A stretch of DNA of 64,000 nt from Incurvaria masculella. Taxonomy: Eukaryota > Arthropoda > Insecta > Lepidoptera > Incurvariidae. Position 1 is the stretch's first letter; every line of letters starts with the position of its first letter. This document shows positions 29,744 to 58,177 of the stretch, in pieces. Below the pieces are notes generated by a model, which saw only the letters and a list, made by a program, of their open reading frames with translations, did not search any database and was not told where the DNA came from. The stretch spans positions 7,400,501-7,464,500 of the forward strand of contig OX335651.1 in NCBI GenBank assembly GCA_946894095.1, given 5' to 3'. Position numbers and translations under genes: made by a program.

Positions 29744-30323
29744 TAGTACGAGAGCGGACCGTCGTCAACCCTACGTCATCGAGTAACACCATGGGACCCA
29801 TTTGTGGTTGTGCGGATTAGAATAGGCTTCCTAAAAATACTAGGTTGCCTGACCAAAACCTGGAACGTTTTGTGCAGTAGGTAATATTAAATCACTTTTT
29901 TGGTAGAATTTAACGTCATCGAGTAACAACATGAGACCTAGCACAATCGGTAAAGGTCATCAAGAAAAGCTAAAAAAAAGTAGGTTGGCTCGTCCTACCC
30001 TGGCACGTTCTGAGGTTGGCCGGTTTTAAAATGTCAAAAAATTAAAAAAAATACGTCATCGAGTAACAAGTTGACAATACCACCATTCGATAGTCCTATG
30101 AACATGCCTCATAAAAAAATTAGGTTGGCTGCCCTCAGCCTGGCACGTTTCCTACGCGGCCATGTTGAACGTCGGATGCGCCCAGTTCTTATATTCATCA
30201 ATTGTTAAATTAATATAATATAACAGTTTTGTGATATGTCTATCTATAAACAGTGATGTTTTTATTGATCAGAACTCATCTTGAATAGGTTAAAAAAAAA
30301 CAAAATGAAATATTTGTGATATA
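29744..30323 (+). repeat. Left TIR of element A, three 140-bp units
   Basis: ACGTCATCGAGTAACA occurs at 29773, 29913 and 30053, exactly 140 bases apart. AGGTTGSCT (29842, 29982, 30122) and TGGMACGTT (about 29861, 30001, 30141) keep the same 140-base step. The TIR is therefore three diverged tandem units followed by a unique AT-rich tail. Confidence 0.85.
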
Positions 30324-30439
30324 GGTATTGATCGATTGCGTGATATTAGGGCATTGTCGTATCTAATTATTAACTAAGTTTAACTCAAGTTAACTTTAGA
30401 TTATGATGCACATAGTTCCGCATACTTGAAGAGTAAAAA

Positions 30440-31240
30440 CCGGAAGTTTCATATACATATGCTTTCGGAATCTATCGTATGGATCATTCCACGTAGGGAA
30501 TCGAAACTCCAGTCAGCCCATGCCTACGGCATTAGAGGCGCACGCTTTAAGTTCTGCCACGGCCCTCGTTATTACAAAATTTTAATCAGATTGAATGTAA
30601 ACATAACGTAATGAAGATGACTATTGTCATAATAAAATAAATCGCCACAAAACTTAAACCCATAAGTGAAGTATCTCAAAGTTACTATTCTTTAATTCAC
30701 ATGAATTTAGGGTAAATATTCTAGTGTATATTTCCATTCTTTAAACATTTCAATGTATATGTTTTTGCCGGGTCTATACAAAAGTACATGTCCACATCGT
30801 CACTCACATATTAAGGAAGTTTAGTAAGCTTTGGCGTCACTCTCTTTTCTTTACTTACGTATCTCTTTTATTTTATCATAAACAAGTTGCAATGTATCCA
30901 AACCGAAGCGGAATTTTAAATTAACAGCTCTTAAGTCGTAGGTATAGTTTAAATAATACCTGAAAAGCTCTGTAAAATATTTATGTTTTAGTTATAGAAA
31001 ACATATACATTTAAATGTTTAAAGGATGGAAATAACCATGAATATTTAACCTAAAGTCATGTGAATACAAGAATAGTAACTTTTTGGCGATTTATTTTAT
31101 TATGAATATTAAAATTCTTCATTACATCAGGTTAACATTCAATCTAATTTGAATTATGTAATGAGGAGCTCCGTCGCAGAATGTAAAGCTTGCGCCTCTA
31201 ATGTCGTAGGCATGGGCTGACAGGGGTTGAAGAAAGGACC
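30440..31240. repeat. Inner inverted repeat of element A
   Basis: The segment about 30500-30765 (CAGCCCATGCCTACGGCATT, AAATAAATCGCCAC) returns inverted at about 31000-31235 with about 235 bases between. The same palindrome exists in copy B (about 56680-57420). No function is apparent; small open frames in it are mirror images of each other and are not convincing genes. Confidence 0.65.
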
Positions 31241-31479
31241 TTAAAGCGATGCACACTCCAGTGGCAACAAGAAAACATTTTAAAACCTGTGTACGATTTA
31301 GTCCTTCTGATGAGTCTAGTGTTAGATCCAGAATTAATACTATTATTTCTGTCATGAACTACTATAGTGACCTGTAAACAAAGAGACAAATTACAAAACC
31401 TTATTATTCTTACAGCTAAAAAAAACGACATAATATTAAACCTTTAAATGCTACCACCTCCAAAAAAATAAGAGTACAA

Positions 31480-33090
31480 TGGTTTGAGAACAGTCAGTCA
31501 ATCCGTCAGCGTGTTTGCGACCACTGCGGGACATACGCCTCTCCAATCCTTCTCCAGTCCTTCCGGCCCTCAGCGGTACGGACCCACAGCTTTCCCCGAC
31601 GCACTTGATGCCGTCTTTTCACCTGGCGGGTGGTCTTCCCACACTCCGTTTGCCTGTCCACGGCCGCCAGTGTAGGACACGGTTACTCTAACGGTTGTCG
31701 TCTCGTCGGCTGACGTGACCAGCCCTCTCATAACCGGGAGGACGCACTGGTCATATGTTCGGGTCTTTAAATTTTGCGAAAGGTCAGACCTCAGAGCGAA
31801 TTTAAGCTTTCCGAAGGCAGCCCAACCCAGTTGAATCCGTCGCTCAACCTCCAAAGACAGTCCTTGTATACCAAGCCGCAGGATTTGACCGAGATAACGA
31901 TTTGTCCTCCCGTCATACCCTCAGTCGCCATGACCTTGGTTTTATCCCGGTTAATCTTCAGACCTACCTATCGATGCTTTATAAAGGTCTTCCAGCATTG
32001 TTTGAAGCTGAACTCGGGATTTTGACAAAAGAACAATGTGATCGGCGAAGCGAAGATGACTGAGGAAAATATTCATTAACGTTGATACCCATGTTGTCCC
32101 ATTCAAGCGTCTTGAACACATATTCCGATGCGCTTGTGAAGAGCTTGGGTGAGATCACATCTCCCTGCCTAACGCCTTTAGCAAGAGGGATGGGTTGGGT
32201 ATTTTAATGAAGCCTCACAGTCATCGTCGCGGACCGATACAGATTTCGGAGTACCTCGAACGCCTGGTGATCGATTCTACACCTCAGGAGGGAGTTTTCG
32301 ACAGCCCATTTTTCAACTGAGTCTCGTAAAGGACTAGAAAAGAAGTGGAAGGCTACAAAGAGCGGCTTGTTGTACTCCTCGTACTTCTGCACCACTTGTC
32401 TCACAGTAAATATTTGATCCATTATGCCGTATCTTTTCCTGAACCCAGCTTGCTCACGAGGCTGGTACTGATTCAGCCTCTGTGTCAGCCAACTCGTGAT
32501 GACTCATGAAAAGACCTTGTATACGTGGCTTAGAACTGAGATAGGTCGATAGTTCTTCAACTTCGCCCTATTTTTTTGAGAACTGCATTTGAGAATTGCA
32601 CAGTGTTTGCAGTTCCTTCAAGATGGGTCTCCCGCCAGACTTTAGCAGTTCCATCGTTATCCCGTCCTCATCTGGAGCCTTATGTTTTTTTAGTCCTTTC
32701 AAAACAGCCTTTATCTCATAGACACTAATCTCCGGCAGATCCTCGGTGTAGTATCTAGTGAGCGGCGCACTCCTATCAGAGTCGAGTGGTTTGCTTGGGC
32801 TCGGGGCATGAATTGCTGCGGAGTACAATTCGTCATAATTTTTTACCACCGCCTCAAGTATATCGTCTTTTTTGCAGTGACAACCCTATCCGCTCGCTTG
32901 GGTTTTGAAATTTAGTTAGCGCCGGTAGAGAAGGCACGGGAAAACACTTTACTGTCTCGATTTTCCTCTATAACGCGCTCAACCAACTTCATGTTCCCTT
33001 GGTGAATATCGCTACGGGATATGGTGCGTAACGTGGCAATCCGCCGACGTACCAAAGTAGTCGATATTGGACACCGGGTGGCTAAGCTAG
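31480..33090 (-). pseudogene. RTE-like LINE fragment (minus) in element A
   Basis: From right to left on the minus strand, pieces of reverse transcriptase are recognisable: LKGLKKHKAPDEDGITMELL near 32700, then KWAVENSLLRCRID near 32280, then the C-terminal VERRIQLGWAAFGKLKFALR near 31820. Frameshifts and stops are frequent. It faces a second copy in plus orientation that starts at about 33090. Confidence 0.7.
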
Positions 33091-35365
33091 CTAGAAGGAG
33101 GAGTACAACAAGCCGTTTTTTGTAGCCTTCGTGGAATACGAGAAGGCGTTCGACTCAGTTGAAAAATGGGCCGTCGAAAACTCCCTCCTGAGGTGCAGAA
33201 TCGACCCCCGCTACATCGAGGTACTCCGAATTCTGTATCGGTCCGCGACGATGACTGTGAGGCTCCATGAAAATACCCAACCCATCCCTCTTGGTAAAAG
33301 CGTTAGGCAGGGGGATGTGATCTCAAATCAAATAAAATCAAAAATATCAAATCAAAATATTTTTATTCGCAGTGATTACATTACAATATTAAGAATTTGC
33401 ATAACAGATTATAATATTGATACCAATCATGTGAATTCGACGTTTTACACAATAATATTAAAATAACTTAAATCGTAGAAAGATTTGTCAAGCAACCATG
33501 TACTTAACTTCTTTTTAAATCTTATGTTAGTTTCTTCTCGCAAGTCTCTAGGTAGCTTATTATACATATTAATACTATTGAAGTGGACACCCTTCTCAAA
33601 TTTTGATGTTGAGTGTGCAGCTTGCTGGATCACATTTTTATTTCTCGTCGAATATCCGTGTTCAAAATTATTATATAATTCCGGGTAATTTCTCACATAA
33701 AAAATAGTTCTTTGTACGTACACATCATACATAGTATGCAATTTTAGGTTTTTAAACAAAGGCGTGCAAACAAGTGCGTCCCATTTAGAGTGTGTAATTA
33801 TCCGAATTGCTTTCTTTTGTAGTCTAAATACTGAAACCGCTTCCCCTGAAGAACCTCAGAACTCAATGGCATTGGTCATGACAGAGTATAAATAACCGAA
33901 GTAGGCACTCTTCAGGGTATCTAAGTCACAGCATTTAGACAGGGTTCTGAGGCAATAACAAGCTTTTGTTAATTTATCACAAACATGTTGAATGTGTTTG
34001 TCCCATCGTAACTTTTGATCCAACGTGAAGCCTAAGAATATAATAGATATTGCAAACGTTATGAATTCATCGTTATATTCGATAAACATCTCATCATTAA
34101 TTTCATGTTTAATATTTTTCATCTTAAAATGTACACAGTGTGTTTTAGCACTATTTAACATTAACCCATTTGCTGCGAACCATTTACCCAACTCCTCAAT
34201 TATTTTTGTTCTTTTTGTAAGGAGTGTTTCAATACTTTTATCAGTAACAATTACATTTGCGTCGTCAGCGTAAATTACTATGATTTCGCGAGAAGCACTA
34301 GCATAGTGTCTTTTGCAATGTCATCAATAAAAATAATAAACAGCAATGGTGCCATGATTGAGCCTTGAGGTACTCCGTAATCGGTTTCAAATAATCGTGA
34401 TACAGAGTTATCGAAAATACCATTTGTTCTGTTTTTATATCTTATATTTACGTTACTTTCTCACCGACATTTTCTCACCCAAGCTCTTCACAAACGCATC
34501 GGAATATGTGTTCAAGACGCTTGATGGGACAACATGGGTATCAACGTTAGTGAATATTTTCCTCAGTTATCTTCGCTACGCCGATCACATTGTTCTTCTG
34601 TAAAATTCCCGAGTTCAGCTTTAAACCATGCTGGAAGACCTTTATAAAGCATCGATAAAGGTAGGTCTGAAGATGAACCGGGATAAAACCATGGTCATGG
34701 CGACTGAGGGTATGACGGGAGGACAAATCGTTATCGACGTAGAAGTGATCAAACAGGTTGAAAAGTACGTATATCTCGGTCAAATCCTGCGGCTTGGTAT
34801 TCAAAGACTGTCATTGGAGGTTGAGCGACGGATTCAACTAGGTTGGGTTGCCTTCGGAAACCTTAAATTCGCTCTGAGGTCTGACCTTCCTGAAATTTAA
34901 AGACCCGAACATATGACCAGTGCGTCCTCCCGGTTATGACGTACGGGTGTGAAACGTGGACTCTGACGGTCGCCGTTGTCCAAAGGTTAAAAGTTGCCCA
35001 GCGAGCAATGGAGCGAGCCATGCTGGGAATATCGCTACAGGATATGGTACGTAAAGAGGCAATCCGCCGACGTACCAAAGTAGTCGATATTGGGCACCGG
35101 GTGGCTAAGCTCAAATGGCAGTGGGCTGGTTACGTCAGCCGAAGAGACGACGACCGTTGGAGTAACCGTGTCCTGCACTGGCGGCCGTGAACAGGCAAAC
35201 GGAGTGTGGGAAGACTACTCGCCAGGTGGGAAGATGAGATCAAGTGCGTCGGCGGAAAGCAGTTGTTCCGTACCGCTGAGGGCCGGGAGGACTGGAGAAG
35301 GATTGGAGAGGCGTATGTCCAGCAGTGGACGCAAACACGCTGACTGACTGACTGACATTGCGAAA
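33005..35365 (+). pseudogene. RTE-like LINE fragment (plus) in element A, interrupted
   Basis: The plus-strand reading gives EYEKAFDSVEKWAVENSLLR near 33140, is interrupted at about 33330-34470 by another LINE fragment, and resumes with LYKASIKVGLKMNRDKTMVM near 34640, MTYGCETWTL near 34940 and RRTKVVDIGHRVAKLKWQW near 35075. The end is marked by GACTGACTGACTGAC near 35341. It is head to head with the minus copy. Confidence 0.7.
33330..34470 (-). pseudogene. CR1/Jockey-type LINE 3' fragment in element A
   Basis: On the minus strand the thumb and C-terminal part of an ORF2 is recognisable: GKWFAANGLMLNSAKTHC, IIFLGFTLDQKLRWDKHI, AIRIITHSKW and FKKKLSTWLLDKSFYDL. It has several breaks. The same insert, better preserved, is at 54830-55650 in copy B. 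Confidence 0.75.
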
Positions 35366-35369
35366 ATTG

Positions 35370-36220
35370 TACCCATTTTCTCGAAGCACAGGGCCCATTT
35401 CGGTGAAGATATGGTCCTTGTCACACAACCGCTGTGCTCTGAGTCTCAATGCTCTTGCGACCGATTCCAAATGCACCGGAGCATGATGCGAAGTAGCTTG
35501 TAGACAACGATTTGTGTGTGTCGGCTTGCGGTACACTGTGTGGCTTAGAATTCCATCCAATCGTCGAGCAACAAGTACTTCCAAGAACGCCAAAGTGCCT
35601 TCCTTCTCACAATCTACTGTATATTTTATATTTGTGTGAACCTAATTAAGATGAGAGATGAAAGCGTCGAGTGATTGGCGACCATGTGACCAGATTGAAA
35701 TCACGTCATCCACGTACCGTACCCAAAACATTGACTTAAGAGGTGAAGTTTGCAATGTGCGGTGTTCCAGCGGTTCCATGAAAAGGTTTGCCACCACTGG
35801 TGTCACTGGTGTTCCCATTGCTACACCTTATCGCTGAATGTAGTATTGTCCGTTCCACAGAAAGTATGTCTTAGTGAGACAATATGGCAGGAGCTTGACG
35901 CACTCAGTGTCGATGTCGTTGCTGATGACTAAGTTTCTGATGATGTCGAGGGACTCTTGGACTGGTACGTCTGCATACAGCGACTCGACGTCAAAGCTCA
36001 CTAATAGATCCATGCATGCCAACTTCACTGTAGACAACAATTCCACAAAAAGGGCCGAATCTTTAACGTAGGACGACGTCTTGCCAGACAGGGGTTGAAA
36101 TATTGAGGCGACATGTTTAGCGAGGAGGTAGGTAGGAGCATTTATCTGGCTGACTTTTGGTCGAAGGGGGTTCCCGTCTTTGTGAATTTTAGGAAGACCG
36201 TAGAAGCGCTACCACCGCAT
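35370..36220 (-). pseudogene. Penelope-like element RT fragment in element A
   Basis: The minus strand reads SFDVESLYADVPVQESLDI and CLTKTYFLWNGQYYIQR, with a decayed continuation toward FLEVLVARRLDGILSHTVYR. The SFDV-SLY-VPV motif and the later YRKPTHT motif are those of Penelope-type reverse transcriptases. Stops interrupt it. Confidence 0.75.
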
Positions 36221-36389
36221 TTTCGCTACCACCTCGACCCACACTTACACTACTTACGACCACGGCGAGTCTAGTTGTCAGTCGTCTGCTGCGTACGAAC
36301 GTGGCGGACAACCTCCTTGACAACGGGCTGAACGATTAGCTCGATACATCGGCGAATGTCTACTCCCGCCGCGTGAAAAGCCGTAACAT

Positions 36390-37330
36390 TTTTCAAATAT
36401 ATTTAACGACCACGGTAATCCCAAAAGTATCACAAGTAAGGTTATTTCTTTAGTTATAGCTGAAGATAGATCATTTGCTGTATTTAATACTTCACAATTC
36501 ACATTACGTATTTGGGTCCCCAGTGCATTAAACTCGTTTTACTGTCATTTAAACGTAGGTTATTGGCTTCACACCATAATTTAAGTGAGCTATGAAAGCT
36601 TGTATTAAGGACTCCCGTAGTTCTGATATACGATTCTTTCAAATTGATGATTTGTCATCAGCAAATAGAATCATATCATTATCTGTTGCGATGCAGCTTG
36701 AAATATCATTTATAACAACATATAAAACCACGGTCTTAGAACTGAGCCCTGCGGTATACCCATGGTGATTTATTCTACATCAGATATAGTACCGTTTACT
36801 TCACAATTTTGTTGTCTATTTAATATAAATATATATTATTTACAATTACCTCATTTATTTTCCCTAACACCATAAGTGTTCTAGTTTTCCTGGAAGTATT
36901 TTGTGATCTACACAGTCAAAAGCTTTTGATAAATCACAGAAAATGCCGTAGGTGCTCATAGATTTAACCAGAGAAGTTAAAATAGATATTAACATCAAGG
37001 CAATGGCATCTCCTGTTGACCTACACTTACGAAATTGATTATAATTAATAACACTGTGAATGTAAGGACACAGGCCGATAAATTTCAACATCATTATGAG
37101 ATCCGTTTTTAAGCAATGGTATTACCCTAGTAATTTTTAATAAGTCTGGAAATGTGCCATCTTCAATACAATTCTAAGAGGTTCTATAATACTGCCCAAT
37201 ATGGACTTTAACAGATTAGTAGATATGTTCCATAAACCTTGCGGTCCTTTGGACTTAAGGTCTGTTACTTTTTGAATCTCAGAACAGCTAACAGATTCAA
37301 AAGTGACAGACTTCTTATTGCGTGGTAAAA
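36390..37330 (-). pseudogene. Decayed CR1/Jockey-type RT fragment in element A
   Basis: On the minus strand CRSTGDAIALMLISILTSLV and STYGIFCDLSKAFDCVDHKI represent RT palm motifs. They are similar in layout to the LINE at 58178-60006 (KSTNDAIAKLLKLILASL; LFCDLSKAFDCVSHDI). Many stops. Confidence 0.65.
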
Positions 37331-37462
37331 ATATTTTGAGTTCCTCTAATGCGAGATTTACAATTTATTGGATGTATTTAGTTGTATGTATATATTGCGC
37401 GACAGAAGAAAAATATTTGTTGAAATTAAATTATTTGCAACCATTGCACCCAATCAATCAAT

Positions 37463-38043
37463 ATATCACAAATATTTCATTTTGTTTTTTTTTTACCTAT
37501 CCAAGGTGAGTTCAGATCAATAAAAACATCACCGGTTTATAGATAGACATATCACAAAACTGATATATTATATTAATTTAACAATTGATTGAATATAGGA
37601 ACTGGGCGCATCCGACGTTCAACATGGCCGCGTAGGAAACGTGCCAGGCTGAGGGCAGCCAACCTAATTTTTTTATGAGGCATGTTCATAGGACTATCGA
37701 ATGGTGGTATTGTCAACTTGTTACTCGATGACGTATTTTTTTTTATTTTTCGACATTTTAAAACCGGCCAACCTCAGAACGTGCCAGGGTAGGACGAGCC
37801 AACCTACTTTTTCTTAGCTTTTCTTGATGACCTTTACCGATTGTGCTAGGTCTCATGTTGTTACTCGATGACGTTAAATTCTACCAAAAAAGTGATTTAA
37901 TATTACCTACTGCACAAAACGTTCCAGGTTTGGGTCAGGCAACCTAGTATTTTTAGGAAACCTATTCTAATCTGCACAACCACAAATGGGTCCCATGGTG
38001 TTACTCGATGACGTAGGGTTGACAACGGTCCGCTCTCGTACTA
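37463..38043 (-). repeat. Right TIR of element A
   Basis: This is the inverse of 29744-30323 with scattered differences, including the three 140-bp units (ACGTCATCGAGTAACA read on the minus strand). It ends CTCGTACTA, followed by TAA. Confidence 0.85.
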
Positions 38044-38215
38044 TAAGAAACTAAACATTATATAAACTATTTATACGTGGACATTATTTTTAAGCTATGT
38101 TAAGGTACATTGGTTACATGAATTATGAATCAAATATTGGGTACATTCAGGAGTTAACAAATACTTTATAATTCAGCTTTTTATCTTATAAGCGTTATCT
38201 TTAACGTTCGTTCGT
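38044..38215. other. 3' flank of the THAP transposase gene
   Basis: A short AT-rich stretch between the right TIR of element A and the transposase stop (38216-38218). Element A inserted here within about 170 bases of the gene's end. Confidence 0.5.
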
Positions 38216-46049: not shown

Positions 46050-46110
46050 ATATCGACTTATTATTTTTTATTCCTGATTGATTAAAACCTATTATTTTTG
46101 CATAATCAAT

Positions 46111-48184
46111 ATGTCTACGATGTCAACACGACGAAAGAGGTTAGAAAATACGGTAAATTTGGACAATAAAAGACCTGTTACCTCGACAAAAGACATGGAT
46201 ATTATTAAATATTTACGAAAAGAGCTAGAAAAAAGTCAAAATACAAACCAACAGTTAATAATTGAAAATGAGGAGAGTGCATTGGAATATAAGAAGTTGC
46301 TAGAATATAATTCATCTCTGAAATCAGAATTAGCTGAGTTTGACATTGCCATCTCTGACGCTTGGGCCGAGCGTGATATGCTGCGTCGGAAATTAGATGA
46401 AAGCCACGAAGAAAATGAAGACTACGAAAATGCATTAGCACTTATAAAAGAACTGGAAGAAACAATTACTTTATTGCAGGAGATCCACAATAACCGGCAA
46501 GAAACACAAGAATCGTTTTCACGCTTAGTTCCTGTTTCGCCGCGAACTACCTCTAAAGCTGCTCCTTCCTCGCAAAAACCGAGACAAAAAAAGGGTCATG
46601 GTCACCGAAAAGGTATTCGTTGGCTCATTACCATACACCGCAGGAGCCTGCGAAGGCTACGAGCCTCTAAAATCTTAGGTGGAATTAGCTATATACGGGA
46701 GCCTGATAACACGGCCCGGTTATGTACATGCAGTGGTAAAAACTCGCCAGCATATACAAACACCGCCACGAGTATTGTAGAGGAGAAGATTGGCACCGCA
46801 TTTACTGAGCCCGCTACACCCGCGCTAATGAGTGCTGGTACGTTAGTTTCACCTGGCCTGATAGCCACTTCTGCATCTGCTGACCTAGGTCAGCTGGATG
46901 CTGCCTTGACTGTTGCTGTGAAAGAGCGAATAAATACTGCGTCGTCTGGACATCGGGATACCACCGTGCCATGCGTGGAACTGCAAGTTGACATGAGTGA
47001 TCCCACTGCCATGGCTGCTGTTGACCCCGCTGGCCCCATGTGCGCCCCAGAAGGCGTCTCCACCGCTGTCACCTCAACTGGAGCACATGGTGGCGCTCGT
47101 GCCCTGGGTAACCTGGCGGGTGCCCTCACGGTTGCCCTCACCACTGCCTACAACGATGCCACGGCTATTTTTTCACCTATCCCTGCCGTGACTACCGCTG
47201 CTAGCGCTGTTGGTGCTGCTGGTGTCTCGACGGGAGTTGCGGCTACTTATGTTGCTGCCACCGCCAACTCTACCGTTGGTGCAACTCATAAAGTCTCCGA
47301 CGCGCCCTGTACAAGAAAAAGTGTTTGCCTCCCGGTTTTTCCCAGTGCTTCCAATGAATATGTGCTTGGTCCTGTCACAAAAAATGACAGGTTCCTAGGA
47401 TTTAAAAAAAATGTTAATATTGTGTGACGAGTATGGACGCAACTTATCTGGTGCCATAAATTTGAAACAAAATGTGAATAAAAAAGTCAGTTCTTTTTGC
47501 AAGCCAGGTGCAGGATTAGAAGAAGTAATAAAAAACCTAGACAACCACTCAAGAAATTTAAATGAAGGCGATGAAGTGTCAATAATAGCAGGATGTGCCA
47601 GAGCAAACCTTAACCTTACCAAGCACATCAAAAATATACGCTTAGTGTCAGAAAAGTGTCAAGAAAAACAACTCAAACTGTACATTAGTTCGTTAGCATA
47701 TGTACGTGAATTGAAGCATTCTTATCATCTCGACGAAGTGAATAACATAATACACAAAATAAATAACAAAATCTATGATATGGCCTCTAGTATCCCTAGT
47801 ACTATTTTCCTGGATCTAAATAAATTAGACTCTGATTGTTATTGCAGTAAAGGTATCATAAATACTAAGGGAACACAGAATCTGTCAGATCTGTTAACAA
47901 ATGGCAATGACAACCAACAGATGTCGAATCTCAGATTTATATCATCGGAGATGTACTTGTCCCCAAAAACTTTATTATTATCAAGGGTAACTGATTGCAC
48001 AGACGATGTCATGCCTGATATAAATAAATCTAGTTTTATAGTCGCTAACCATAAGAATGCGACGATAGTAAATAAATCAAAACGCTGCAAGACTCTCAGG
48101 CAAACCAAAATATCAGAGTTCATAAACCTTAAGGCTACACATATTTTTTTAGGAATAGATCTGACATCACAGATAAACATGTGA
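46111..48184 (+). pseudogene. LINE ORF1: coiled coil, Ala/Thr-rich region, esterase-like domain; one frameshift
   Basis: The first segment (46111-47427, frame 1) starts MSTMSTRRKRLEN. It has a long heptad-rich coiled coil to about residue 150, a basic patch and an Ala/Thr/Val-rich tract (about residues 215-400). The second segment (from about 47411, frame 2, to 48184) opens with LILCDEYGRNLSGAI and has DEVSIIAGCARANL, a layout like the SGNH-type esterase domain in ORF1 of some CR1-type LINEs. The frame changes at an eight-A run (47403-47411); one A fewer would join them. Mutation and homopolymer error are both possible. Confidence 0.7.
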
Positions 48185-49224
48185 TACATGAAGCTAGATT
48201 TCGGAGCAGAAATACTGACCTTATAGTAGCACATCAGAATGTGCAAGGACTTCGAGGCAAAGACCTTCAACTCGATATATGTCTCAGTGAACACAACATC
48301 GATGTCTTTTGTATCACTGAATCCTGGCTTGATGCCAATGAAATTAATATATTTAACTTAAATAAATATTACATACCAAGTAGTAGCAATAGAAAGAATT
48401 TTATAAGAGGCGGTACTTTGATAATTGTGAAAAAGTTTTTGAGAGCAAAAAATAGGCCTGATATTGTTAATAAGTCAGTAGAAAAGGTGTTTGAGGCTAG
48501 CTGCGTAGAGTTGGACAACATGATTGTGTTATCAGTATACCGATCTCCCTCAGCTGCTCTCGATGTTTTTTGTGAGAAATTAGATGAGTGTTTAGGAATA
48601 TTAGTGAAAAATAATTATAAGAGCATAGTGATTTGTGGGGATTTCAATGTACAGTTCCCGCTAAATAAAGAAGACTCTCATGATTTATCGGACATTATGA
48701 ACAGCTACCTGCTAAAGCAACACATTTTTGAACATACAAGAGTTACAGAGAGTTCAGCGACGTGCATCGACAATATATTCACTGACATTAAAGTAACAAA
48801 AGCCATGATAATAAAAAGCATTAAGTCTGACCACTACGGTCAACTAGTGGCTTTTAAATTGGGTAGTCGTAGGGAAAAAAAAGAAACATGAAACAGATAA
48901 GAGTTGTAACAGACGCCAATATATTACTTCTCAAAAGAGACCTTAAAATAGAATTTCAATCAATGAATTTAAATGTTAAAACTTTTTTTAATACCATAAT
49001 AAGATTGACAAATGCTTACTTGCCACTTAAATATATAAGGAAAGATAGTAATCATACAACATTTGGTAACTGGGCAACTAAGGGCATACGGATATCAAAA
49101 AATAAAATGTTCCTACTGTATGACTTATTAAAAATATGTAAAAAAGATCATTTGCGAAAATATGTATCGAACTATAGCAAAATATTTAAAAAAGTTACTA
49201 TCCTGGCAAAGAAGCTATATCTTA
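48181..49224 (+). pseudogene. LINE ORF2, 5' part: endonuclease; one frameshift
   Basis: The APE-type endonuclease shows VAHQNVQGLRG, ITESWLD, VICGDFNVQFP, CIDNIFTD and SDHYGQLV. There is no ATG at the start of the frame; GTG 48181 follows directly on the ORF1 stop (48182-48184). Near 48876-48884 an eight-A run coincides with a switch from frame 1 to frame 3, and the protein continues from 48888 as KQIRVVTDANILLLKRDL. It is cut at LAKKLYL by element B. RT motifs continue at 58178. Confidence 0.8.
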
Positions 49225-49805
49225 TAGTACGAGAGCGGACCGTAGTCAACCCTACGTCATCGAGTAACAACATGGGACCCATTTGTGGTTGTGCGGATTA
49301 GAATAGGCTTCCTAAAAATACTAGGTTGCCTGACCCAAACCTGGAACGTTTTGTGCAGTAGGTAATATTAAATCACTTTTTTGGTAGAATTTAACGTCAT
49401 CGAGTAACAACATGAGACCTAGCACAATCGGTAAAGGTCATCAAGAAAAGCTAAAAAAAAGTAGGTTGGCTCGTCCTACCCTGGCACGTTCTGAGGTTGG
49501 CCGGTTTTAAAATGTCGAAAAATAAAAAAAAATACGTCATCGAGTAACAAGATGACAATACCACCATTCGATAGTCCTATGAACATACTTCATAAAAAAA
49601 TTAGGTTGGCTGCCCTCAGCCTGGCAGGTTTCCTACGCGGCCATGTTGAACGTCGGATGCGCCCAGTTCTGATATTCATCAATTGTTAAATTAATATAAT
49701 ATAACAGTTTTGTGATATGTATATCTATAAACCGGTGATGTTTTTATTGATCTGAACTCACGTTGGATAGGTAAAAAAAAAACAAAATGAAATATTTGTG
49801 ATATA
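49225..49805 (-). repeat. TIR of element B (left in window)
   Basis: ACGTCATCGAGTAACA recurs at 49254, 49394 and 49534, again exactly 140 apart, as in copy A. The sequence then runs into the AT-rich inner part shared by all four ends. Confidence 0.85.
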
Positions 49806-49879
49806 TTGATAGTTTGCGTGCAATGGTTGCAAAAAAAATCATTTCAACAAATATTTTTCTTCTGTCGCTCAAGATACAA

Positions 49880-50800
49880 CTAAATACATCCAATAAATTG
49901 TAAATCTCGCATTAGAGCAACTCAAAATATTTTTACCACGCAATAAGAAGTCTGTCACTTTTGAATCTGTTAAAGTCCATATGGGGCAGTATTATAGAAC
50001 CTCTTAGAATTGTATTTAATATGGCACATTTCCAAACTTATTAAAAATTACTAGGGTAATACCATTGCTTAAAAAGGGATCTCATAATGATGTTGAAAAT
50101 TATCGGCCTGTGTCCTTACATTCACAGTGTTATTAATTATAATCAATTCGGATTTCGTAAGTGTAGGTCAACAGGAGATGCCATTGCCTTGATGTTAATA
50201 TCTATTTTAACTTCTCTAGTTAAATCTATGAGCACCTACGGCATTTTCTGTGATGTATCAAAAGCTTTTGACTGTGTAGATCACAAAATACTTCCAGGAA
50301 AACTAGAACACTTATGGTGTTAGGGAAAATAAATGAGGTATTTGTAAATTATATATATTAAATAGACAACAAAATTGTGAAGTAAACGGTACTAAGTCTG
50401 ATGTAGAATCAATCACTATGGGTATACCGCAGGGTTCAGTTCTAAGACCGTGGTTTCATATGTTGTTATAAATGATATTTCAAGCTGCATCGCAACAGAT
50501 AATGATATGATTTTATGTGCGGATGACAAATCATGAATTTAAAAAAATCGTATATCAGAACTACGGGAGTCCTTTATACAAGCTATGAACTCACTTAAAT
50601 TATGGTGTGAAGCCAATAACCTACTTTTAAATGACAGTAAAACGAGTTTAATGCACTGGGGACCCAAATACGTAATGTGAATTGTGATGTATTAAATACG
50701 GCAAATGATCTATCTTCAGCTATAACTAAAGAAATAACCTTACTTGTGATACTTTTGGGGTTACCGTTGTCGTTAAATATATTTGAAAATTAATATGGCT
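49880..50800 (+). pseudogene. Decayed CR1/Jockey RT fragment in element B
   Basis: It reads NQFGFRKCRSTGDAIALML and STYGIFCDVSKAFDCVDHKI around 50140-50290, then GIPQGSVL near 50420 with many stops. It is the counterpart of 36390-37330 in copy A. Confidence 0.65.
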
Positions 50801-50959
50801 TTTCACGCGGCGGGAGGAGACATTCGCCGACGTATCGAGCTGATCGTTCAGTTGTCAAGGAGGTTGTCCGCCACGTTCATACGCAGCAGACGACTGACAA
50901 CTAGGCTCGCCGTGGTCGTAAGTCATAGGTGTGGGTCGAGGTGGTAGCGGAAATGCGGT

Positions 50960-51850
50960 GATAGTGCTTCTACGGTCTTCCTAAAATTCACAAAGACGGG
51001 AACCCCCTTAGACCAATAGTCAGCCAGATAAATGCTCCTACCTACCTCCTCGCTAAACATGTCGCCTCAATATTTCAACCCCTGTCTGGCAAGACGTCGT
51101 CCTACGTTAAAGATTCGGCCCATTTTGTGGAATTGTTGTCTACAGTGAAGTTGGCATGCATGGATCTATTAGTGAGCTTTGACGTCGAGTCGCTGTATAC
51201 ACACGTACCAGTCCAAGAGTCCCTCGACATCATCAGAAACTTAGTCATCAGCAACGACATCGACACTGAGTGCGTCAAGCTCCTGCCATATTGTCTCACT
51301 ACGACATACTTTCTGTGGCAAGGACAATACTACATCCAGCGAGAAGGTGTAGCAATGGGATCACCAGTGACACCAGTGGTGGCAAACCTTTTCATGGAAC
51401 CGCTGGAACACCGCACATTGCAAACTTCACCTCTTAAGTCAATGTTTTAGGTACGGTACGTGGATGACGTGATTTCAATCTGGTCACATGGTCGCCAATC
51501 ACTCGACGCTTTCATCTCTCATCTTAATTAGGTTCACACAAATTTAAAATATACAGTAGATTGTGAGAAGGTAGGCACTTTGGCGTTCTTAGAAGTACTT
51601 TTTGCTCGACGATTGGATGGAATCCTAAGCCACACAGTGTACCGCAAGCCGACACACACAAATCGTTGTCTACAAGCTACTTCGCATCATGCTCATTTTG
51701 GTGCATTTGTGTGGGTGCATTTGGAATCGGTCGCAAGAGCATTGAGACTCAGAGCACAGCGGTTGTGTGACAAGTGTGTCACACAACCGCTGTGCTCTGT
51801 GTGTGTGTGAATATCTTCACCGAAATGGACCCTGTGCTTCGAGAACATGG
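50960..51850 (+). pseudogene. Penelope-like element RT fragment in element B
   Basis: GLPKIHKDGNPL is recognisable near 50970, SFDVESLYTHVPVQESLDI near 51175, GVAMGSPVTPVVANLFMEPL near 51350 and the catalytic RYVDDVISIW after an in-frame stop near 51448. TVYRKPTHTNRCLQATSHHA follows near 51640. This is better preserved than in copy A but has at least two stops. The GIY-YIG domain is not seen. Confidence 0.8.
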
Positions 51851-51859
51851 GTACAATTT

Positions 51860-52455
51860 TCGCAATGTCGGTCAGTCAGTCAGCGTGTTTGCATCCACTG
51901 CTGGACATACGCCTCTCCAATCCTTCTCCAGTCCTCCCGGCCCTCAGCGGTACGGAAGCACTGCTTTCCGCCGACGCACTTGTCTCATCTTCCCACCTGG
52001 CGAGTGGTCTTCCCACACTCCGTTTGCCTGTTCACGGCCGCCAGTGTAGGACACGGTAACTCCAACGGTCGTCGTCTCTTCGGCTGACGTGACCAGCCCA
52101 CTGCTATTTGAGCTTAGCCACGCGGTGTCCAATATCGACTACTTTGGTACGTCGGCGGATTGCCTCTTTACGTACCATATCCCGTAGCGATATTCCCAGC
52201 ATTGCACGCTCCATTGCTCGCTGGGCAACTTTTAACCTTTGGACAACGGCGACCGTCAGAGTCCACGTTTCACACCCGTACGTCATGTCATAACCGGGAG
52301 GACGCACTGGTCATATGTTCGGGTCTTTAAATTTCTACGGAAGGTCAGACCTTAGAGCGAATTTAAGCTTTCCGAAGGCAGCCCAACCCAGTTGAATCCG
52401 TCGCTCAACCTCCAAAGACAGTCCTTGTATACGAAGCCGCAGGATTTGACCGAGA
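51860..52455 (-). pseudogene. RTE-like LINE C-terminal fragment in element B
   Basis: The minus strand reads MTYGCETWTLTVAVVQRLKV, RRTKVVDIGHRVAKLK and the GACTGACTGAC-type end near 51870. It continues on the other side of the inserted LINE at 54540-54830. Confidence 0.7.
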
Positions 52456-54530
52456 TATACTTGTATTTATTTATTTGTATTTATTTATTTATTTATTTAT
52501 TTGACAAATACATACATTTTACATAACAGGAAACCAAGGCGTAAAATGTAGCAAACTTAATTTCAATATGGAAGAAAAAAAAAACAGACATTTAATTAAC
52601 TATGGATGAGTTAACTTTCAAATAGCCTTCCAAAAATGTCGTGCACACTCTCTCAAACGTCCTTCTCAGATTTACAAACACATCACATTCAGGTGTTGAC
52701 AGATGCATCGCATTGAACAGCCTCAGGACGAGACATATGGGCGACCAGTAGTGAGAGCGGGTGCGCGTCACGATCTCGGCAAACAAACGTGCGTTCCGCC
52801 GTCGAGCGTAACCATCAGGCACGTTCAGTGCTAGTACCAGCTGTAGTAAAGCTTGCGAATCAACTTTCCCAATCAGAATTTTGAAACCAAACAGCATTAA
52901 TGCCCGGGATCTCCGAAGTTCAAGTGAGTTGAAGCCCAGAATCCCGAGTAAAAATGCTGTTGGGTACATATAAGGGTAATACCCGTTTATCTGAGTATAT
53001 AAAAATCTCAGGAACCTTTTTTGAATTTTCTCCAGCATGAGAATATAGTGATCCTCATGTGGAGACCAGACAATTGCCCCCGCTTCTAGCTTAGATCTGA
53101 CAAGCGTATTAAACAATAATTTTAGTGCGATCGGATCCTTAAACTCTTTGGCATTTCGCAGTACGAAACCCAGCTTGCCAAATGAGGCTTTTGTTAATGC
53201 TCGTATGTGAGGATTGAAGGTGAGGTGTGCATCAAAAACAACACCGAGGTCTTTAACTTCTGTCGCCCTGGGAATTCCTTTAGCACCCAGGCGGTAGTCG
53301 TGCATCAGTGGTGTGAGTGAGCGAGTGTATGATGCTACTATACACTTTTCAGGATTAAAAGCTAGTTTGTTTGTGATGCTCCACTGATACACTACATCAA
53401 GAGTACGTTGAATAACCTCGCAATCAGCTTCATCCTTAATACGTAAGAATAGCTTCAAATCATCAGCATATAGAAGACAGGACACCAAGCTTGTCAACCC
53501 TACAATGTCATCAATCATTATATTAAAGAGGAGACTAGACAGGACTGAACCCTGACTTACTCCTGATCGGGTATTATAAGGTTCAGATTCGTAGCACCCG
53601 TACCTTACATACTGGCGCCGATCTCGTAGGTATTCAGCGAATAATACTAGAAGCTTAGGTGTGAAACCTGCCGTACTGAGTTTATGGAGTAGAATATCGT
53701 TATCAACTCTGTCGAATGCTTTTCGGAAGTCCAAGTACACCACATCTACTTGTGTATTTTTGTCCAGACTCTCAGAAATATAATGACTGATGACTAGCAA
53801 GTTTGATTCGACAGAGCGCTTTCGTGTAAATCCATGCTGTTCCTGTGACATGTAGGGTGCAGTGCCCTCATAAATGTAACTGTGTAAAATCGATTCAAAA
53901 ATCTTGGCAGCAGCTGAGAGCACTGCTACCGGTCTATAGTTCTCCGCATTTGATTTGTCGCTACCCTTAGGTATCGGAGTTACTCGTGTCACTTTCCATT
54001 GCTGTGGATATACACCCGACTCGAGAGCTAGGTTGAATATATGGAGGAGAGGAACACTTACAAAATCGGAAGATCCTTTCAACACATAGCCAGGAATACC
54101 ATCAGGACCTATCGCACTACGTGACTTGAGTTGTCTGAGAGCGAGACAGACATCCGCACTCGTGATAGTAGCTATATTGACATAGCGACTACCGCCCGCG
54201 TCTCCACCCGCACCCGTCCCTGCCCGCTGCGCGACAACCGGGTCCAGTATTGGAATGTTCGGTAAGAATACGGATTGAAAGAAATTTGCAAAGGCTTGAG
54301 CGGCAGCCGGACCTCGGTGAGGTACGCCCTGCTGAGATATACACGGTTCAAAACCACCTTTAGAATGTAAGCTACGCACATACCCCCAGAATGTCTGTGA
54401 GTTTTTTTGAAGCTTTAATTCTGCAGATCTAGTGTACTCTGTACGTAACATAGCCATTTTAACTTTTATTTGACCTCGCAAAGCACTAAAATTTTCGTAA
54501 AAACGTACTCTTCAACCTGTTCGATCACTT
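52456..54530 (-). mobile_element. 5'-truncated LINE inserted in element B
   Basis: A minus-strand LINE end with an AAATA-repeat tail (52460-52505). It interrupts the RTE-like fragment (GACCGAGATATAC at the left, ACGTACTCTTCAACC at the right) and is absent from copy A. It therefore inserted after A and B separated. Confidence 0.8.
52592..54481 (-). CDS. LINE ORF2 partial: reverse transcriptase, 629 aa
   Basis: An uninterrupted frame covers the RT region through the C-terminus; the endonuclease is missing because of 5' truncation. Motifs: NAENYRPVAVLSAAAKIFE, QEQHGFTRKRSVESNLLVI, VYLDFRKAFDRVDNDIL, SGVSQGSVLSSLLFNIMIDD and the catalytic LLYADDLKLF. There is no RNase H. The intact frame suggests a recent insertion. 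Clade: CR1/Jockey type by motif order. Confidence 0.85.
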   Translation of the reverse strand: MRGQIKVKMAMLRTEYTRSAELKLQKNSQTFWGYVRSLHSKGGFEPCISQQGVPHRGPAAAQAFANFFQSVFLPNIPILDPVVAQRAGTGAGGDAGGSRYVNIATITSADVCLALRQLKSRSAIGPDGIPGYVLKGSSDFVSVPLLHIFNLALESGVYPQQWKVTRVTPIPKGSDKSNAENYRPVAVLSAAAKIFESILHSYIYEGTAPYMSQEQHGFTRKRSVESNLLVISHYISESLDKNTQVDVVYLDFRKAFDRVDNDILLHKLSTAGFTPKLLVLFAEYLRDRRQYVRYGCYESEPYNTRSGVSQGSVLSSLLFNIMIDDIVGLTSLVSCLLYADDLKLFLRIKDEADCEVIQRTLDVVYQWSITNKLAFNPEKCIVASYTRSLTPLMHDYRLGAKGIPRATEVKDLGVVFDAHLTFNPHIRALTKASFGKLGFVLRNAKEFKDPIALKLLFNTLVRSKLEAGAIVWSPHEDHYILMLEKIQKRFLRFLYTQINGYYPYMYPTAFLLGILGFNSLELRRSRALMLFGFKILIGKVDSQALLQLVLALNVPDGYARRRNARLFAEIVTRTRSHYWSPICLVLRLFNAMHLSTPECDVFVNLRRTFERVCTTFLEGYLKVNSSIVN

Positions 54531-54539
54531 CTACGTCGA

Positions 54540-54830
54540 TAACGATTTGTCCTCCCGTCATACCCTCAGTCGCCATGACCATGGGTTTATCCCGGTTCAT
54601 CTTCAGACCTACCTTTATCGATGCTTTATAAAGGTCTTCCAGCATGGTTTAAAGCTGAACTCGGGAATTTTACAGAAGAACAATGTGATCGGCGTAGCGA
54701 AGATGACTGAGGAAAATATTCACTAACGTTGATACCCATGTTTTCCCATTCAAGCGTCTTGAACACATATTCCGATGCGTTTGTGATGAGGTTGGGTTAG
54801 AAAATGTGGGTGAGAAAGTAACGTAAATAT
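54540..54830 (-). pseudogene. RTE-like LINE fragment, continuation in element B
   Basis: This is the part of the RTE-like fragment 3' of the LINE insertion on the + strand. It matches about 34480-34780 in copy A in reverse (GTATCAACGTTAGTGAATAT; GGTATGACGGGAGGACAAAT). Frame broken. Confidence 0.65.
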
Positions 54831-55650
54831 AAGATATAAAAACAGACTAAATGGAATTATCGATAACTCTGTATCACGATTATTTGAAACCGATTACGGA
54901 GTACCTCAAGGCTCAATCATGGCACCATTGCTGTTTATTATTTTTATTAATGACATTGCAAAAGACGCTATGCTAGTACTTCTCGCGAAAACCATAGTAA
55001 TTTACGCTGACGACGCAAATGTAATTGTTACTGATAAAAGTATTGAAACACTCCTTACAAAAACAACAAAAATAATTGAGGAGTTGGGTAAATGGTTCGC
55101 AGCAAATGGGTTAATGTTAAATAGTGCTTAAACACACTGTGTACATTTTAAGATGAAAAATATTAAACATGAAGTGAATGATGAGATGTTTATCGAATAT
55201 AACGGTGAAGTCATAACGTTTGCAACATCTACTATATTCTTAGGCTTCAAGTTGGATCAAAAGTTACGATGGGACAAACACATTCAACATGTTTGTGATA
55301 AATTAACAAAAGCTTGTTATTGCCTCAGAACCCTGTCTAAATGCTGTGACTTGAATACCCTGAAGAGTGCCTACTTCGGTTATTTATACTCTGTCATGAC
55401 CTATGGCATTGAGTTCTGGGGTTCTTCACTGGAAGCGGTTTCAGTATTTAGACTACAAAAGAAAGCAATTCGGATAATTACACACTCTAAATGGGACGCA
55501 CTTGTTTGCACGCCTTTGTTTAAAAACCTAAAATTGCATACTATGTATGATGTGTACGTACAAAGAACTATTTTTTATGTGAGAAATTATCCGGAATCAT
55601 ATAATAATTTTAAACACGGATATTCGACGAGAAATAAAAATGTGATCCAG
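54830..55650 (+). pseudogene. CR1/Jockey-type LINE 3' fragment in element B
   Basis: It reads GVPQGSIMAPLLFIIFINDI near 54900, then VIYADDANVIV, GKWFAANGLMLNS, an in-frame stop near 55130, LGFKLDQKLRWDKHIQHVCD near 55240 and WDALVCTPLFKNLKLHTMYD near 55490. Better preserved than its counterpart in copy A (33330-34470). Confidence 0.78.
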
Positions 55651-55654
55651 CCAG

Positions 55655-56500
55655 CTGAAAAATGGGCTGTCGAAAACTCCCTCCTGAGGTGTAGAATCGA
55701 CCACCGCTACATCGAGGTACTCCGAAATCTGTATCGGTCCGCGACGATGACTGTGAGGCTTCATTAAAATACCCAACCCATCCCTCTTGCTAAAGGCGTT
55801 AGGCAGGGGGATGTGATCTCACCCAAGCTCTTCACAAGCGCATCGGAATATGTGTTCAAGACGCTTGAATGGGACAACATGGGTATCAACGTTAATTAAT
55901 ATTTTCCTCAGTCATCTTCGCTTCGCCGATCACATTGTTCTTGTGTCAAATTCCCGAGTTCAGCTTCAAACAATGCTGGAAGACCTTTATAAAGATAAGT
56001 AGTAGAAAGATAGGTAGGTCTGAAGATGAACCGGGATAAAATCAAGGTCATGGCGACTGAGGGTATGACGGGAGGACAAATTGTTATCTCGGTCAAATCC
56101 TGCGGCTTGGTATACAAAGACTGTCTTTGGAGGCTAAGCGACGGATTCAACTGGGTTGGGCTGCCTTCGGAAAGCTTAAATTCGCTCTGAGGTCTGACCT
56201 TTCGCAAAATTTAAAGACCCGAACATATGACCAGTGCGTCCTCCCAGTTATGAGTGGGCTGGTCACGTCAGCCGACGAGATGACGACCGTTAGAGTAACC
56301 GTGTCCTACACTGGCGGCCGTGGACAGGCAAATGGAGTGTGGGAAAACCACCCACCAGGTGGAAAGACGGCATCAAGTGCGTCGGGGAAAGCAGTGGGTC
56401 CGTACCGCTGAGGGCCGGTAGGACTGGAGAAGGATTGGAGAGGCGTATGTCCCACAGTGGTCGCAAACACGCTGACGGATTGACTGACTGTTCTCAAACC
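55655..56500 (+). pseudogene. RTE-like LINE fragment (plus) in element B
   Basis: It reads EKWAVENSLLRCRIDHRYIE near 55660 and RRIQLGWAAFGKLKFALRSD near 56135, ending with a GACTGACTG run near 56483. Frame broken. It corresponds to 31480-32310 in copy A. Confidence 0.7.
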
Positions 56501-57594
56501 ATTGTACTCTTATTTTTTTGTAGGTGGTAGCATTTAAAGGTTTAATATTATGTCGTTTTTTTTGCTGTAAGAATAATAACTCATCAGAAGGACTAAATCG
56601 TACACAGGTTTTAAAATGTTTTCTTGTTGCCACTGGAGTGTGCATCGCTTTAAGGTCCTTTCTTCAACCCCTGTCAGCCCATGCCTACGAGATTAGAGGC
56701 GCACGCTTTACATTCGGCGACGGAGCTCCTCATTACATAATTCAAATTTGATTGAATGTAAACCTAATGTAATGAAGAATTTTAATAGTCATAATAAAAT
56801 AAATCGCCACAAAGTTACTATTCTTTTATTCACAGGACTTTAGGTTAAATATTCATGGTTATTTCCATCCTTTAAACATATAAATGTATATGTTTTCTAT
56901 AACTAATACATAAATATTTTTACAGAGCTTTTCAGGTATTATTTAAACTATACCTACGACTTAAGAGCTGTTAATTTAAAATTCCGCTTCGGTTTGGATA
57001 CATTGCAACTTTGTTACGATAAATTAAAAGAGATACGTAAATAAAGAAAAGAGAGTGACGCCAAAGCTTACTAAACTTCCTTAATATGTGAGTGACGATG
57101 TGGACATGTACTTTTGTATAGACCCGGCAACGTTGCGTATATATTTATAGAAAACATATACATTGAAATGTTTAAAGAATGGAAATATACTCTAGAATAT
57201 TTACCCTAAATTCATGTGAATTAAAGAATAGTAACTTTGAGATACTTCACTTATGGGTTTAAGTTTTGTGGCGATTTATTTTATTATGACTATTAAAAAA
57301 TCTTCATTACGTTATGTTTACATACAATCTGATTAAAATTTTGTAATAACGAGGCCCGTGGCAGAATTTAAAGCGTGCGCCTCTAATGCCGTAGGCATGG
57401 GCTGACTGGAGTTGCGATTCCCTACGTTGAATGATCCATACGGTAGATTCCGAAAGCATATGTATATGAAACTTCCGGTTTTTACTCTTCAAGTATGCGG
57501 AACTATGTGCATCATAACCTAAAGTTAACTTGAGTTAAACTTAGTTAATAATTAGATACGACAATGCCCTAATATCACGTAATCAATCAGTACC

Positions 57595-58174
57595 TATATC
57601 ACAAATATTTCATTTTGGTTTTTTTTACCCTATTCAAGATGAGTTCTGATCAATAAAAACATCACTGTTTATAGATAGACATATCACAAAACTGTTATAT
57701 TATATTAATTTAACAATTGATGAATATAAGAACTGGGCGCATCCGACGTTCAACATGGCCGCGTAGGAAACGTGCCAGGCTGAGGGCAGCCAACCTAATT
57801 TTTTTATGAAGTATGTTCATAAGACTATCGAATGGTGGTATTGTCATCTTGTTACTCGATGACGTATTTTTTTTTATTTTTTGACATTTTAAAACCGGCC
57901 AACCTCAGAACGTGCCAGGGTAGGACGAGCCAACCTACTTTTTTTTAGCTTTTCTTGATGACCTTTACCGATTGTGCTAGGTCTCATGTTGTTACTCGAT
58001 GACGTTAAATTCTACCAAAAAAGTGATTTAATATTACCTACTGCACAAAACGTTCCAGGTTTGGGTCAGGCAACCTAGTATTTTTAGGAAGCCTATTCTA
58101 ATCCGCACAACCACAAATGGGTCCCATGGTGTTACTCGATGACGTAGGGTTGACGACGGTCCGCTCTCGTACTA
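57595..58174 (+). repeat. TIR of element B (right in window)
   Basis: The inverse of 49225-49805. It contains the three 140-bp units on the minus strand (GTTACTCGATGACGT repeats) and ends CTCGTACTA before TTA. Confidence 0.85.
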
Positions 58175-58177
58175 TTA

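What the first reader, a model, noticed from the sequence alone, without database searches (positions are those of the whole stretch)
29744..58174. A family of giant, transposase-less mosaic TIR elements (copies A and B)
Two elements of 8.3 and 8.95 kb share identical termini (TAGTACGAG...), TIRs of about 580 bp, and 3-bp TTA/TAA duplications, and carry the same internal patchwork of RTE, CR1/Jockey and Penelope-like fragments in the same order. The shared order shows that the mosaic moved as a unit. No transposase is recognisable inside, so they look non-autonomous and mobilised in trans. A MITE-like unit that grew by accumulating retroelements and still transposes at 8-9 kb would be unusual. 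Classification is open: a TTA duplication suggests PIF/Harbinger, but the termini do not settle it.
Basis: partly seen in the sequence, partly recalled or inferred. Interest (0 to 1): 0.88.

Follow-up and report, generated by a model that had tools for sequence, protein, structure and literature searches.

The report
Giant retroelement-stuffed passengers of Academ transposon
In this moth or butterfly genome, hundreds of DNA transposons, mostly 6-9 kb long and filled only with junk pieces of other mobile elements, appear to be moved around by an 11 kb relative that still encodes the cutting enzyme, which suggests that a transposon can swallow other transposons and keep on jumping.

Summary
Observation confirmed. 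A (29744-38043) and B (49225-58174, inverted) are whole transposons: 580-bp inverted repeats, 3-bp target duplications, unrelated flanks, one internal patchwork. The host genome (552 Mb, Lepidoptera-like) holds 528 such ends, about 264 elements; the 47 paired on contigs C1-C3 are 6.0-11.2 kb. Eight other fetched copies differ from A by 0.01-0.10%, two of them identical over 8300 bp; other subfamilies, B's included, also have near-identical copies. Growth by insertion is visible: an older subfamily (2 copies) has the empty site of a retroelement fragment present in all 22 other mosaics compared, and B's lineage gained a further 2-kb LINE and still multiplied. PIF/Harbinger fails: 24 of 26 elements have exact 3-bp duplications, but only 7 of 24 are TTA/TAA. 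Two 11.24-kb elements with the same ends (99.8-99.98% alike where read; TSD TTT, TTG) encode a DDE-transposase-like fold joined to an XPG/FEN1-fold nuclease, one in an uninterrupted 1463-aa frame: the AcademX pattern. Mobilisation in trans is inferred, not shown. The kind is known (non-autonomous transposon); size, nesting, recency, a 140-bp array of conserved boxes, and no copy under 6 kb among the 47 are unusual.

The parts
29744..38043 (+). Copy A, 8300-bp mosaic element
   Evidence: eight other fetched copies with 1-8 mismatches each
29741..29743 (.). TSD of A, left (TAA)
38044..38046 (.). TSD of A, right (TAA)
29744..30323 (+). Left inverted repeat of A; three 140-bp units, 16-mer at 29773, 29913, 30053
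37462..38043 (-). Right inverted repeat of A; 16-mer at 37719, 37859, 37999 on the - strand
29744..30765 (+). Left part shared with the 11.24-kb transposase-bearing element (89% over 1028 columns; outer 440 bp 98%)
37438..38043 (+). Right part shared with the 11.24-kb element (93%)
30505..31229 (.). Imperfect palindrome (arms of about 150 bp and 88 bp)
   Evidence: partly present in the 11.24-kb element
31493..32993 (-). RTE-like reverse-transcriptase fragment, arm 1 (3' end at 31493; 5' limit approximate)
   Evidence: clade name from recalled motifs
33098..35356 (+). RTE-like fragment, arm 2, interrupted by the next feature
   Evidence: clade name from recalled motifs
33326..34472 (-). CR1-like LINE fragment inserted in arm 2, 5-bp duplication TCTCA (33321-33325 and 34473-34477); site empty in L048 and L049
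   Evidence: clade name from recalled motifs
35363..36383 (-). Penelope-like RT fragment (limits approximate)
   Evidence: RVT_1 in the B equivalent; name from recalled motifs
36618..37037 (-). RVT_1 part of a further CR1/Jockey-like fragment (whole fragment about 36400-37400)
   Evidence: name from recalled motifs
49225..58174 (-). Copy B, 8950-bp element of the B subfamily
   Evidence: L017 0.02% different; 9 of 47 paired elements on C1-C3 are 8950 bp
49222..49224 (.). TSD of B (TTA)
58175..58177 (.). TSD of B (TTA)
49225..49805 (+). Inverted repeat of B, its right end
57595..58174 (-). Inverted repeat of B, its left end
52460..54503 (-). 5'-truncated Jockey-like LINE nested in B and L017, and in no other of the 22 elements aligned; 639-aa RVT_1 frame, A/T-rich tail
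   Evidence: clade name recalled
55650..55654 (.). Junction of the 1304-bp deletion (A 2577-3880) seen in B, L017, L024 and L027
46078..60006 (+). CR1-like LINE interrupted by B (46078-49224 and 58178-60006): the empty-site test

Best explanation
A and B are non-autonomous members of an AcademX-type DNA transposon family. The founder was an Academ element that kept about 1 kb of its left end and 0.6 kb of its right end and lost the transposase gene; its middle filled with nested retroelements (RTE-like copies in opposite orientation, Penelope-like and CR1-like pieces). A protein made by the rare full 11.24-kb element (two copies found) recognises the 580-bp ends, probably through boxes repeated at a 140-bp period, cuts out and inserts the whole 6-9 kb body, and leaves a 3-bp AT-rich duplication. 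Later insertions (a CR1-like piece, then a Jockey-like LINE in the B lineage) were carried along, and several lineages have multiplied very recently. Shown: the ends, the duplications, the empty site of B, the order of these insertions, the number of ends, the near-identity of copies, and elements with matching ends that encode transposase-like and nuclease-like folds. Inferred: that this protein moves the mosaics, that the boxes are its binding sites, and how the founder lost its gene.
Confidence: 0.88

Rival explanations
1. PIF/Harbinger elements, as the first reader suggested from the TTA/TAA duplication.
For: A and B show TAA and TTA; TWA MITEs are common in Lepidoptera (PMC9033116 passages and tables; PMC2997013 passages and section 5).
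Against: TTA/TAA in 7 of 24 duplications only. The transposase-bearing elements with the same ends encode other folds. TIRs of the PIF/Harbinger MITEs tabulated in PMC9033116 are 13-84 bp, though that survey only took elements up to 800 bp.
Confidence: 0.02
2. Tc4/Tc5-like elements of the Tc1/mariner group: fold-back ends and TNA duplication at CTNAG.
For: Long inverted repeats; B sits in C-TTA-G; Tc4 is known from arthropods (PMC11071193 passages).
Against: 17 of 24 duplications are not TNA; the partner protein is unlike.
Confidence: 0.01
3. The copies are not insertions but segmental duplications, or were made alike by gene conversion.
For: Near-identity across contigs; three sites in the TIRs where both ends of A agree against both ends of B suggest some homogenisation.
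Against: The 10-bp flanks printed differ at each site, 24 of 26 have exact 3-bp duplications, and B has a tested empty site. Conversion up to but not past the tips would be odd. Longer flanks were not compared.
Confidence: 0.03
4. The mosaic is a trapped stretch of retroelement-rich host DNA between two Academ ends, not a growing element.
For: Most of the middle is retroelement debris, and I found no duplications for the oldest pieces.
Against: The left 1 kb and right 0.6 kb continue the 11.24-kb element beyond its inverted repeats, and at least two later insertions entered the element itself. For the oldest core (RTE arms, Penelope piece) capture remains possible.
Confidence: 0.2

Closest known systems
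Academ superfamily, AcademX lineage (Kapitonov and Jurka 2010; Kojima 2020; seen only as citations in PMC4455052 and PMC10045372 passages)
   Same: 3-bp duplication (AcademX 3-4 bp, PMC10045372 passage), a DDE-transposase-like fold and an XPG/FEN1-like nuclease fold in one protein, inverted repeats, reported from Lepidoptera (PMC5704228 passage).
   Different: 11.24 kb against a mean of 5565 bp for curated bivalve Academ elements (PMC10294476 passage); 540-580 bp internally repeated ends; hundreds of retroelement-filled non-autonomous copies.
Galileo (P superfamily, Drosophila)
   Same: Long inverted repeats with repeated transposase sites (PMC3688188 outline and abstract); long-TIR copies are non-autonomous.
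   Different: 7-bp duplications (PMC3573991 passages); P-type protein; no such nested mosaic in the passages I saw.
Muta1 and other MULEs of Aedes aegypti
   Same: Long TIRs with subterminal repeats; non-autonomous copies with foreign interiors (PMC5225508 passages).
   Different: 8-9 bp duplications; interiors heterogeneous rather than one inherited mosaic.
Rice MULE with a nested MITE, 107 copies
   Same: A DNA transposon that went on multiplying after another element inserted in it (PMC3903597 passages).
   Different: There one 274-bp MITE in a transposase-bearing element; here kilobases of retroelement layers in an element without a transposase.

Membership tests
Academ (AcademX) | 3-4 bp target duplication | tested here: met
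   24 of 26 elements exact 3 bp; rule from PMC10045372 passage
Academ (AcademX) | DDE-type transposase in the autonomous relative | tested here: met
Academ (AcademX) | XPG-type nuclease in the same protein | tested here: met
Academ (AcademX) | Sequence relationship to a named Academ transposase | not tested
   No Repbase sequence was available; PMC7165386 not held
PIF/Harbinger | TWA target duplication | tested here: not met
   7 of 24 are TTA or TAA
Tc4/Tc5 | TNA duplication within CTNAG | tested here: not met
   7 of 24 TNA
P superfamily / Galileo | 7-bp (Galileo) or 8-bp (P, recalled) duplication | tested here: not met
   3 bp in 24 of 26
Mutator-like (MULE) | 8-10 bp duplication (PMC5225508 passage) | tested here: not met
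   3 bp in 24 of 26
MITE | Short element (up to about 800 bp, PMC9033116 passage) | tested here: not met
   47 pairs on C1-C3: 6048-11241 bp, median 8300
Non-autonomous DNA transposon | Shared ends and duplications, no transposase, transposase-bearing relative in the genome | tested here: met

The most novel reading that the evidence does not exclude
The nested retroelements are not dead weight but are needed: with 580-bp near-perfect ends a short element would fold on itself, so only copies with kilobases of filler between the ends stay stable or can be synapsed by the transposase. Insertions into the element would then help it, and lineages with new filler (such as B with its LINE, 9 of 47 paired copies by length) would be favoured. 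No copy under 6 kb among 47, beside an 11.24-kb master, is what this predicts; descent from one large founder predicts it too, and copies without intact tips were not counted.
Probability: 0.2. Interest if true: 0.85.

Novelty: new variant of a known kind. Interest (0 to 1): 0.62.

Why it matters
It gives a time series of one transposon growing by nested insertion while it keeps moving (empty-site copies, filled copies, copies with a further LINE), with a probable driver gene found in only two copies. That makes two open questions testable in one genome: how large and how foreign a cargo a eukaryotic cut-and-paste transposase tolerates, and how retroelement fragments spread by riding on DNA transposons. 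It also shows how a duplication seen in two copies (TTA/TAA) can mislead classification, and gives Academ an apparently recently active member with a visible end architecture.

Tried and rejected
PIF/Harbinger and Tc4/Tc5 were candidates until genome-wide duplications were read. The P-type transposase beside A (38216-40720) was considered as the mover and dropped: that superfamily makes 7-bp or 8-bp (recalled) duplications, and the 16-mer box occurs nowhere in the window outside A and B. A 750-bp insert in L048/L049 looked like a transposase remnant; it has no Pfam match above cut-off (one weak Nudc_N row, E 0.047) and reads like a nested Harbinger-type insertion with a TAA duplication (my reading). 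End patterns found nothing in viral or prokaryotic contigs. Rfam at gathering threshold and ARAGORN found nothing in the window. Foldseek gave ORF1 no match at E 0.001. Literature listings 28, 29, 34, 35, 36, 41, 47, 48, 83 and 91 showed no description of this family that I could recognise; I saw titles and the starts of abstracts (up to 20 rows of each), and passages or sections of the papers named in this report, not whole papers; 41 papers, 20 listed, these 20 all by the 9-base term. The 39 other sites come from the 40 best matches to A's own tip and lean to A-like ends; the 100 ends are simply the first in contig order. Six of those 100 stayed unpaired; two of the six are the damaged copies L022 and L026.
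Full report
WHAT WAS CHECKED. A (29744-38043) and B (49225-58174, opposite strand) share termini TAGTACGAG..., inverted repeats that align over 582 bp at 97.25% within each copy, and unrelated flanks; similarity stops exactly at the tips. A global alignment gives 226 differences in 6807 aligned bases (3.3%) in one order, with a 1304-bp segment missing from B, a 2044-bp segment only in B, and smaller indels. The window is lepidopteran-like: most named relatives of the P-type transposase beside A are moth and butterfly proteins. Between the inverted repeats the only Pfam match in six frames of A is RVT_1, in broken pieces. From recalled motifs in the translations I read RTE-like fragments in opposite orientations, a CR1-like fragment, a Penelope-like fragment and a further CR1/Jockey-like fragment; these clade names come from no call.

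TARGET DUPLICATION OF B. A is flanked by TAA, B by TTA. B lies in a LINE reading frame. With B and one TTA left out, a 726-aa frame runs across the site. Of the 120 relatives listed (of 7839 found), 106 span the site and 105 of these align without a gap; with both TTAs kept, 0 of 106 do. So B is an insertion with a 3-bp duplication.

THE GENOME. The host genome became searchable (552,006,686 bases, 31 contigs; the window is C11:7400501-7464500). The pattern TAGTACGAG, 15-25 bases, ACGTCATCGAGTAACA occurs 266 times forward and 262 times reverse, against 0 and 0 for the reversed control: about 264 elements, by inference roughly 2.2 Mb or 0.4% of the genome. The first 100 listed ends (contigs C1-C3) form 47 pairs and 6 single ends; lengths run from 6048 to 11241 bp, median 8300. 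Nine of the 47 are exactly 8950 bp, the length of B. A further search with a divergent tip (41 matches) shows pairs up to 13.5 kb (lengths worked out by hand from its places).

COPIES. I fetched 20 other sites at 10 kb and 19 at 1.45 kb, all from the 40 best matches to A's tip (the fortieth is A itself). As far as they were read, all 39 carry the mosaic body. L009-L013, L015 and L016 are 8300 bp with 1-7 mismatches to A, L014 is 8281 bp with 8; L009 and L015 show no difference over 8300 bp, on different contigs with different duplications. Other near-identical sets: B and L017 0.02%, L020 and L021 0.01%, L019 and L026 0.04%, L024 and L027 0.10%, L023 and L025 0.35%. Between subfamilies the distances are 1.3-5.9%; the highest, L020/L021 against B and L017, probably include poorly aligned inserts. 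Of the 19 short stretches, L033, L036, L037 and L041 match the first 1.4 kb of L017 at 99.9-100% and belong to 8950-bp pairs.

DUPLICATIONS ACROSS COPIES. Exact 3-bp duplications flank 24 of 26 elements examined: 23 listed (from which I left out L022 and L026) and the C16 element. L022 and L026 have one altered tip each and no duplication. The 24, on the genome's forward strand: TAA 4, TTG 4, TTA 3, TTT 3, ATA 2, GTA 2, and TAT, TGT, TTC, GAA, AAA, ACA once each. TTA or TAA account for 7. This goes against the TWA rule of PIF/Harbinger and the TNA rule of Tc4.

THE ENDS. Each inverted repeat holds three units at a 140-bp period. The 16-mer ACGTCATCGAGTAACA is exact at 12 places in the window, all in A and B; allowing 3 mismatches adds none, against a mean of 0.54 in shuffles. 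In A's left end 53 of 140 positions agree in all three units in register, against a mean of 9.3 and a maximum of 23 in 2000 shuffles. Over 44 ends of 22 elements all three 16-mers are exact in 43, AGGTTG[GC]CT in 43 and CCTGG[AC]ACGTT in 42; one L027 end is shifted by one base. The left outer 440 bp are more conserved than the 601-960 stretch: 1.8% against 10.1% between the C3 element and A (p 4e-7). Of 17 such comparisons, not independent of each other, 14 have p below 0.05; L049 with B, L028 and L048 do not. Between A and B the outer 449 bp of both ends differ at 17 of 898 sites, the body at 203 of 5638 (p 0.007). I read this as constraint on recognition sites; homogenisation between copies may contribute.

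GROWTH BY INSERTION. In A a CR1-like piece lies in RTE arm 2 between two copies of TCTCA; arm 1 shows the uninterrupted sequence. All 22 mosaics of the first set (A, B, L009-L028) have the filled site; L048 (7351 bp, duplication ACA) and L049 (7740 bp, duplication TTG) have the empty one. L048 and L049 differ from the others by about 10% (aligned blocks mostly 87-96% identical) and root the body tree by my choice. They have two inserts of their own, a 750-bp Harbinger-like and a SINE-like piece, named from reading the sequence. A 5'-truncated LINE with a 639-aa RVT_1 frame entered the B lineage later and was multiplied with it (B and L017). So the element moved before the CR1-like insertion, after it, and after the LINE insertion.

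THE PARTNER. The pair of ends at C3:25165858-25177098 encloses 11,241 bp (duplication TTT). Its inverted repeats are 538 bp at 97.8%, with the three boxes at the same places on both ends. With the six mosaics compared it shares about 1 kb on the left (88-91%) and about 600 bp on the right (91-94%), and none of its interior except a SINE-like repeat found in L048/L049. Two overlapping frames of 861 and 637 aa correspond to parts of one protein, up to about 1500 aa long, in relatives: 120 of 140 relatives of the first frame were listed, 44 of these 120 also match the second, and in the 25 printed the order is the same. In the C3 copy the frame is split once. A second copy, C16:755308-766549 (11,242 bp, duplication TTG), is 99.8-99.98% identical in the three stretches fetched and has an uninterrupted 1463-aa frame; the rest of it was not read. 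In one search (36 matches) the next long match is 38% identical; shorter fragments reach 41-68%. Pfam has no match above its cut-offs for either frame.

MECHANISM. Shown: discrete transposition of the mosaics, its recency, the nested order, and elements with the same ends that encode transposase-like and nuclease-like folds. Inferred: supply of the protein in trans from the full copies, binding at the boxes, and cut-and-paste with later copy gain.

NOVELTY. Non-autonomous DNA transposons with foreign interiors, and elements that multiply after taking an insertion, are known (PMC5225508 passages; PMC3903597 passages). What is unusual is one inherited, retroelement-filled body, 6-9 kb in nearly all pairs measured, in some 260 copies, very recent movement of several subfamilies, and no short copy among 47. 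The simplest account of the size is descent from one large founder; a need for filler between long inverted ends is the bolder reading and can be tested. Literature listings 28, 29, 34, 35, 36, 41, 47, 48, 83 and 91 (open PMC papers) showed no description of this family; Repbase and subscription papers were not searched.

Noticed in passing
38216-40720: Long open 834-aa P-superfamily transposase frame (THAP, TNP-like RNase H and GTP-binding insertion domains), its end 172 bp from A's right end.
   Followed up: partly
G000 C1, C4 (two), C18, C19, C20, C26 (two): Eight places with a 1533-aa open frame distantly like the Academ partner (25% identity in ORF2), near-equal scores: perhaps a second, higher-copy autonomous Academ-like family.
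   Followed up: no
G000 C14:16638264-16638543 (L055): Two element tips meet head to head and share the bases TA: an insertion at a tip or an aberrant transposition product.
   Followed up: partly
L048 about 1122-1882 and 5723-6021; L049 about 1121-1873 and 6121-6410: A 750-bp Harbinger-like insert with TAA duplication and a SINE-like insert, not in A, B, L018, L020 or L028.
   Followed up: partly
C8:23219375-23232915: A pair of ends 13.5 kb apart, the largest seen; interior not read.
   Followed up: no
L050+L051 about 2657-5800: Upstream of and at the start of the transposase frame, short frames repeat a similar peptide (...QDK/QEK...), as if a 5' exon had been duplicated.
   Followed up: no
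41785-42044: About 260-bp MITE-like unit with 33-bp inverted repeats at 97%.
   Followed up: no
1365-5057 and 7921-10767: Two long LINE frames (1230 and 948 aa, endonuclease and RT), and a DDE_3 fragment at 5916-6554.
   Followed up: no
TIR positions of about 327-365 in A and B: Three sites where both ends of A agree with each other and differ from both ends of B: a hint of end-to-end homogenisation within an element.
   Followed up: no
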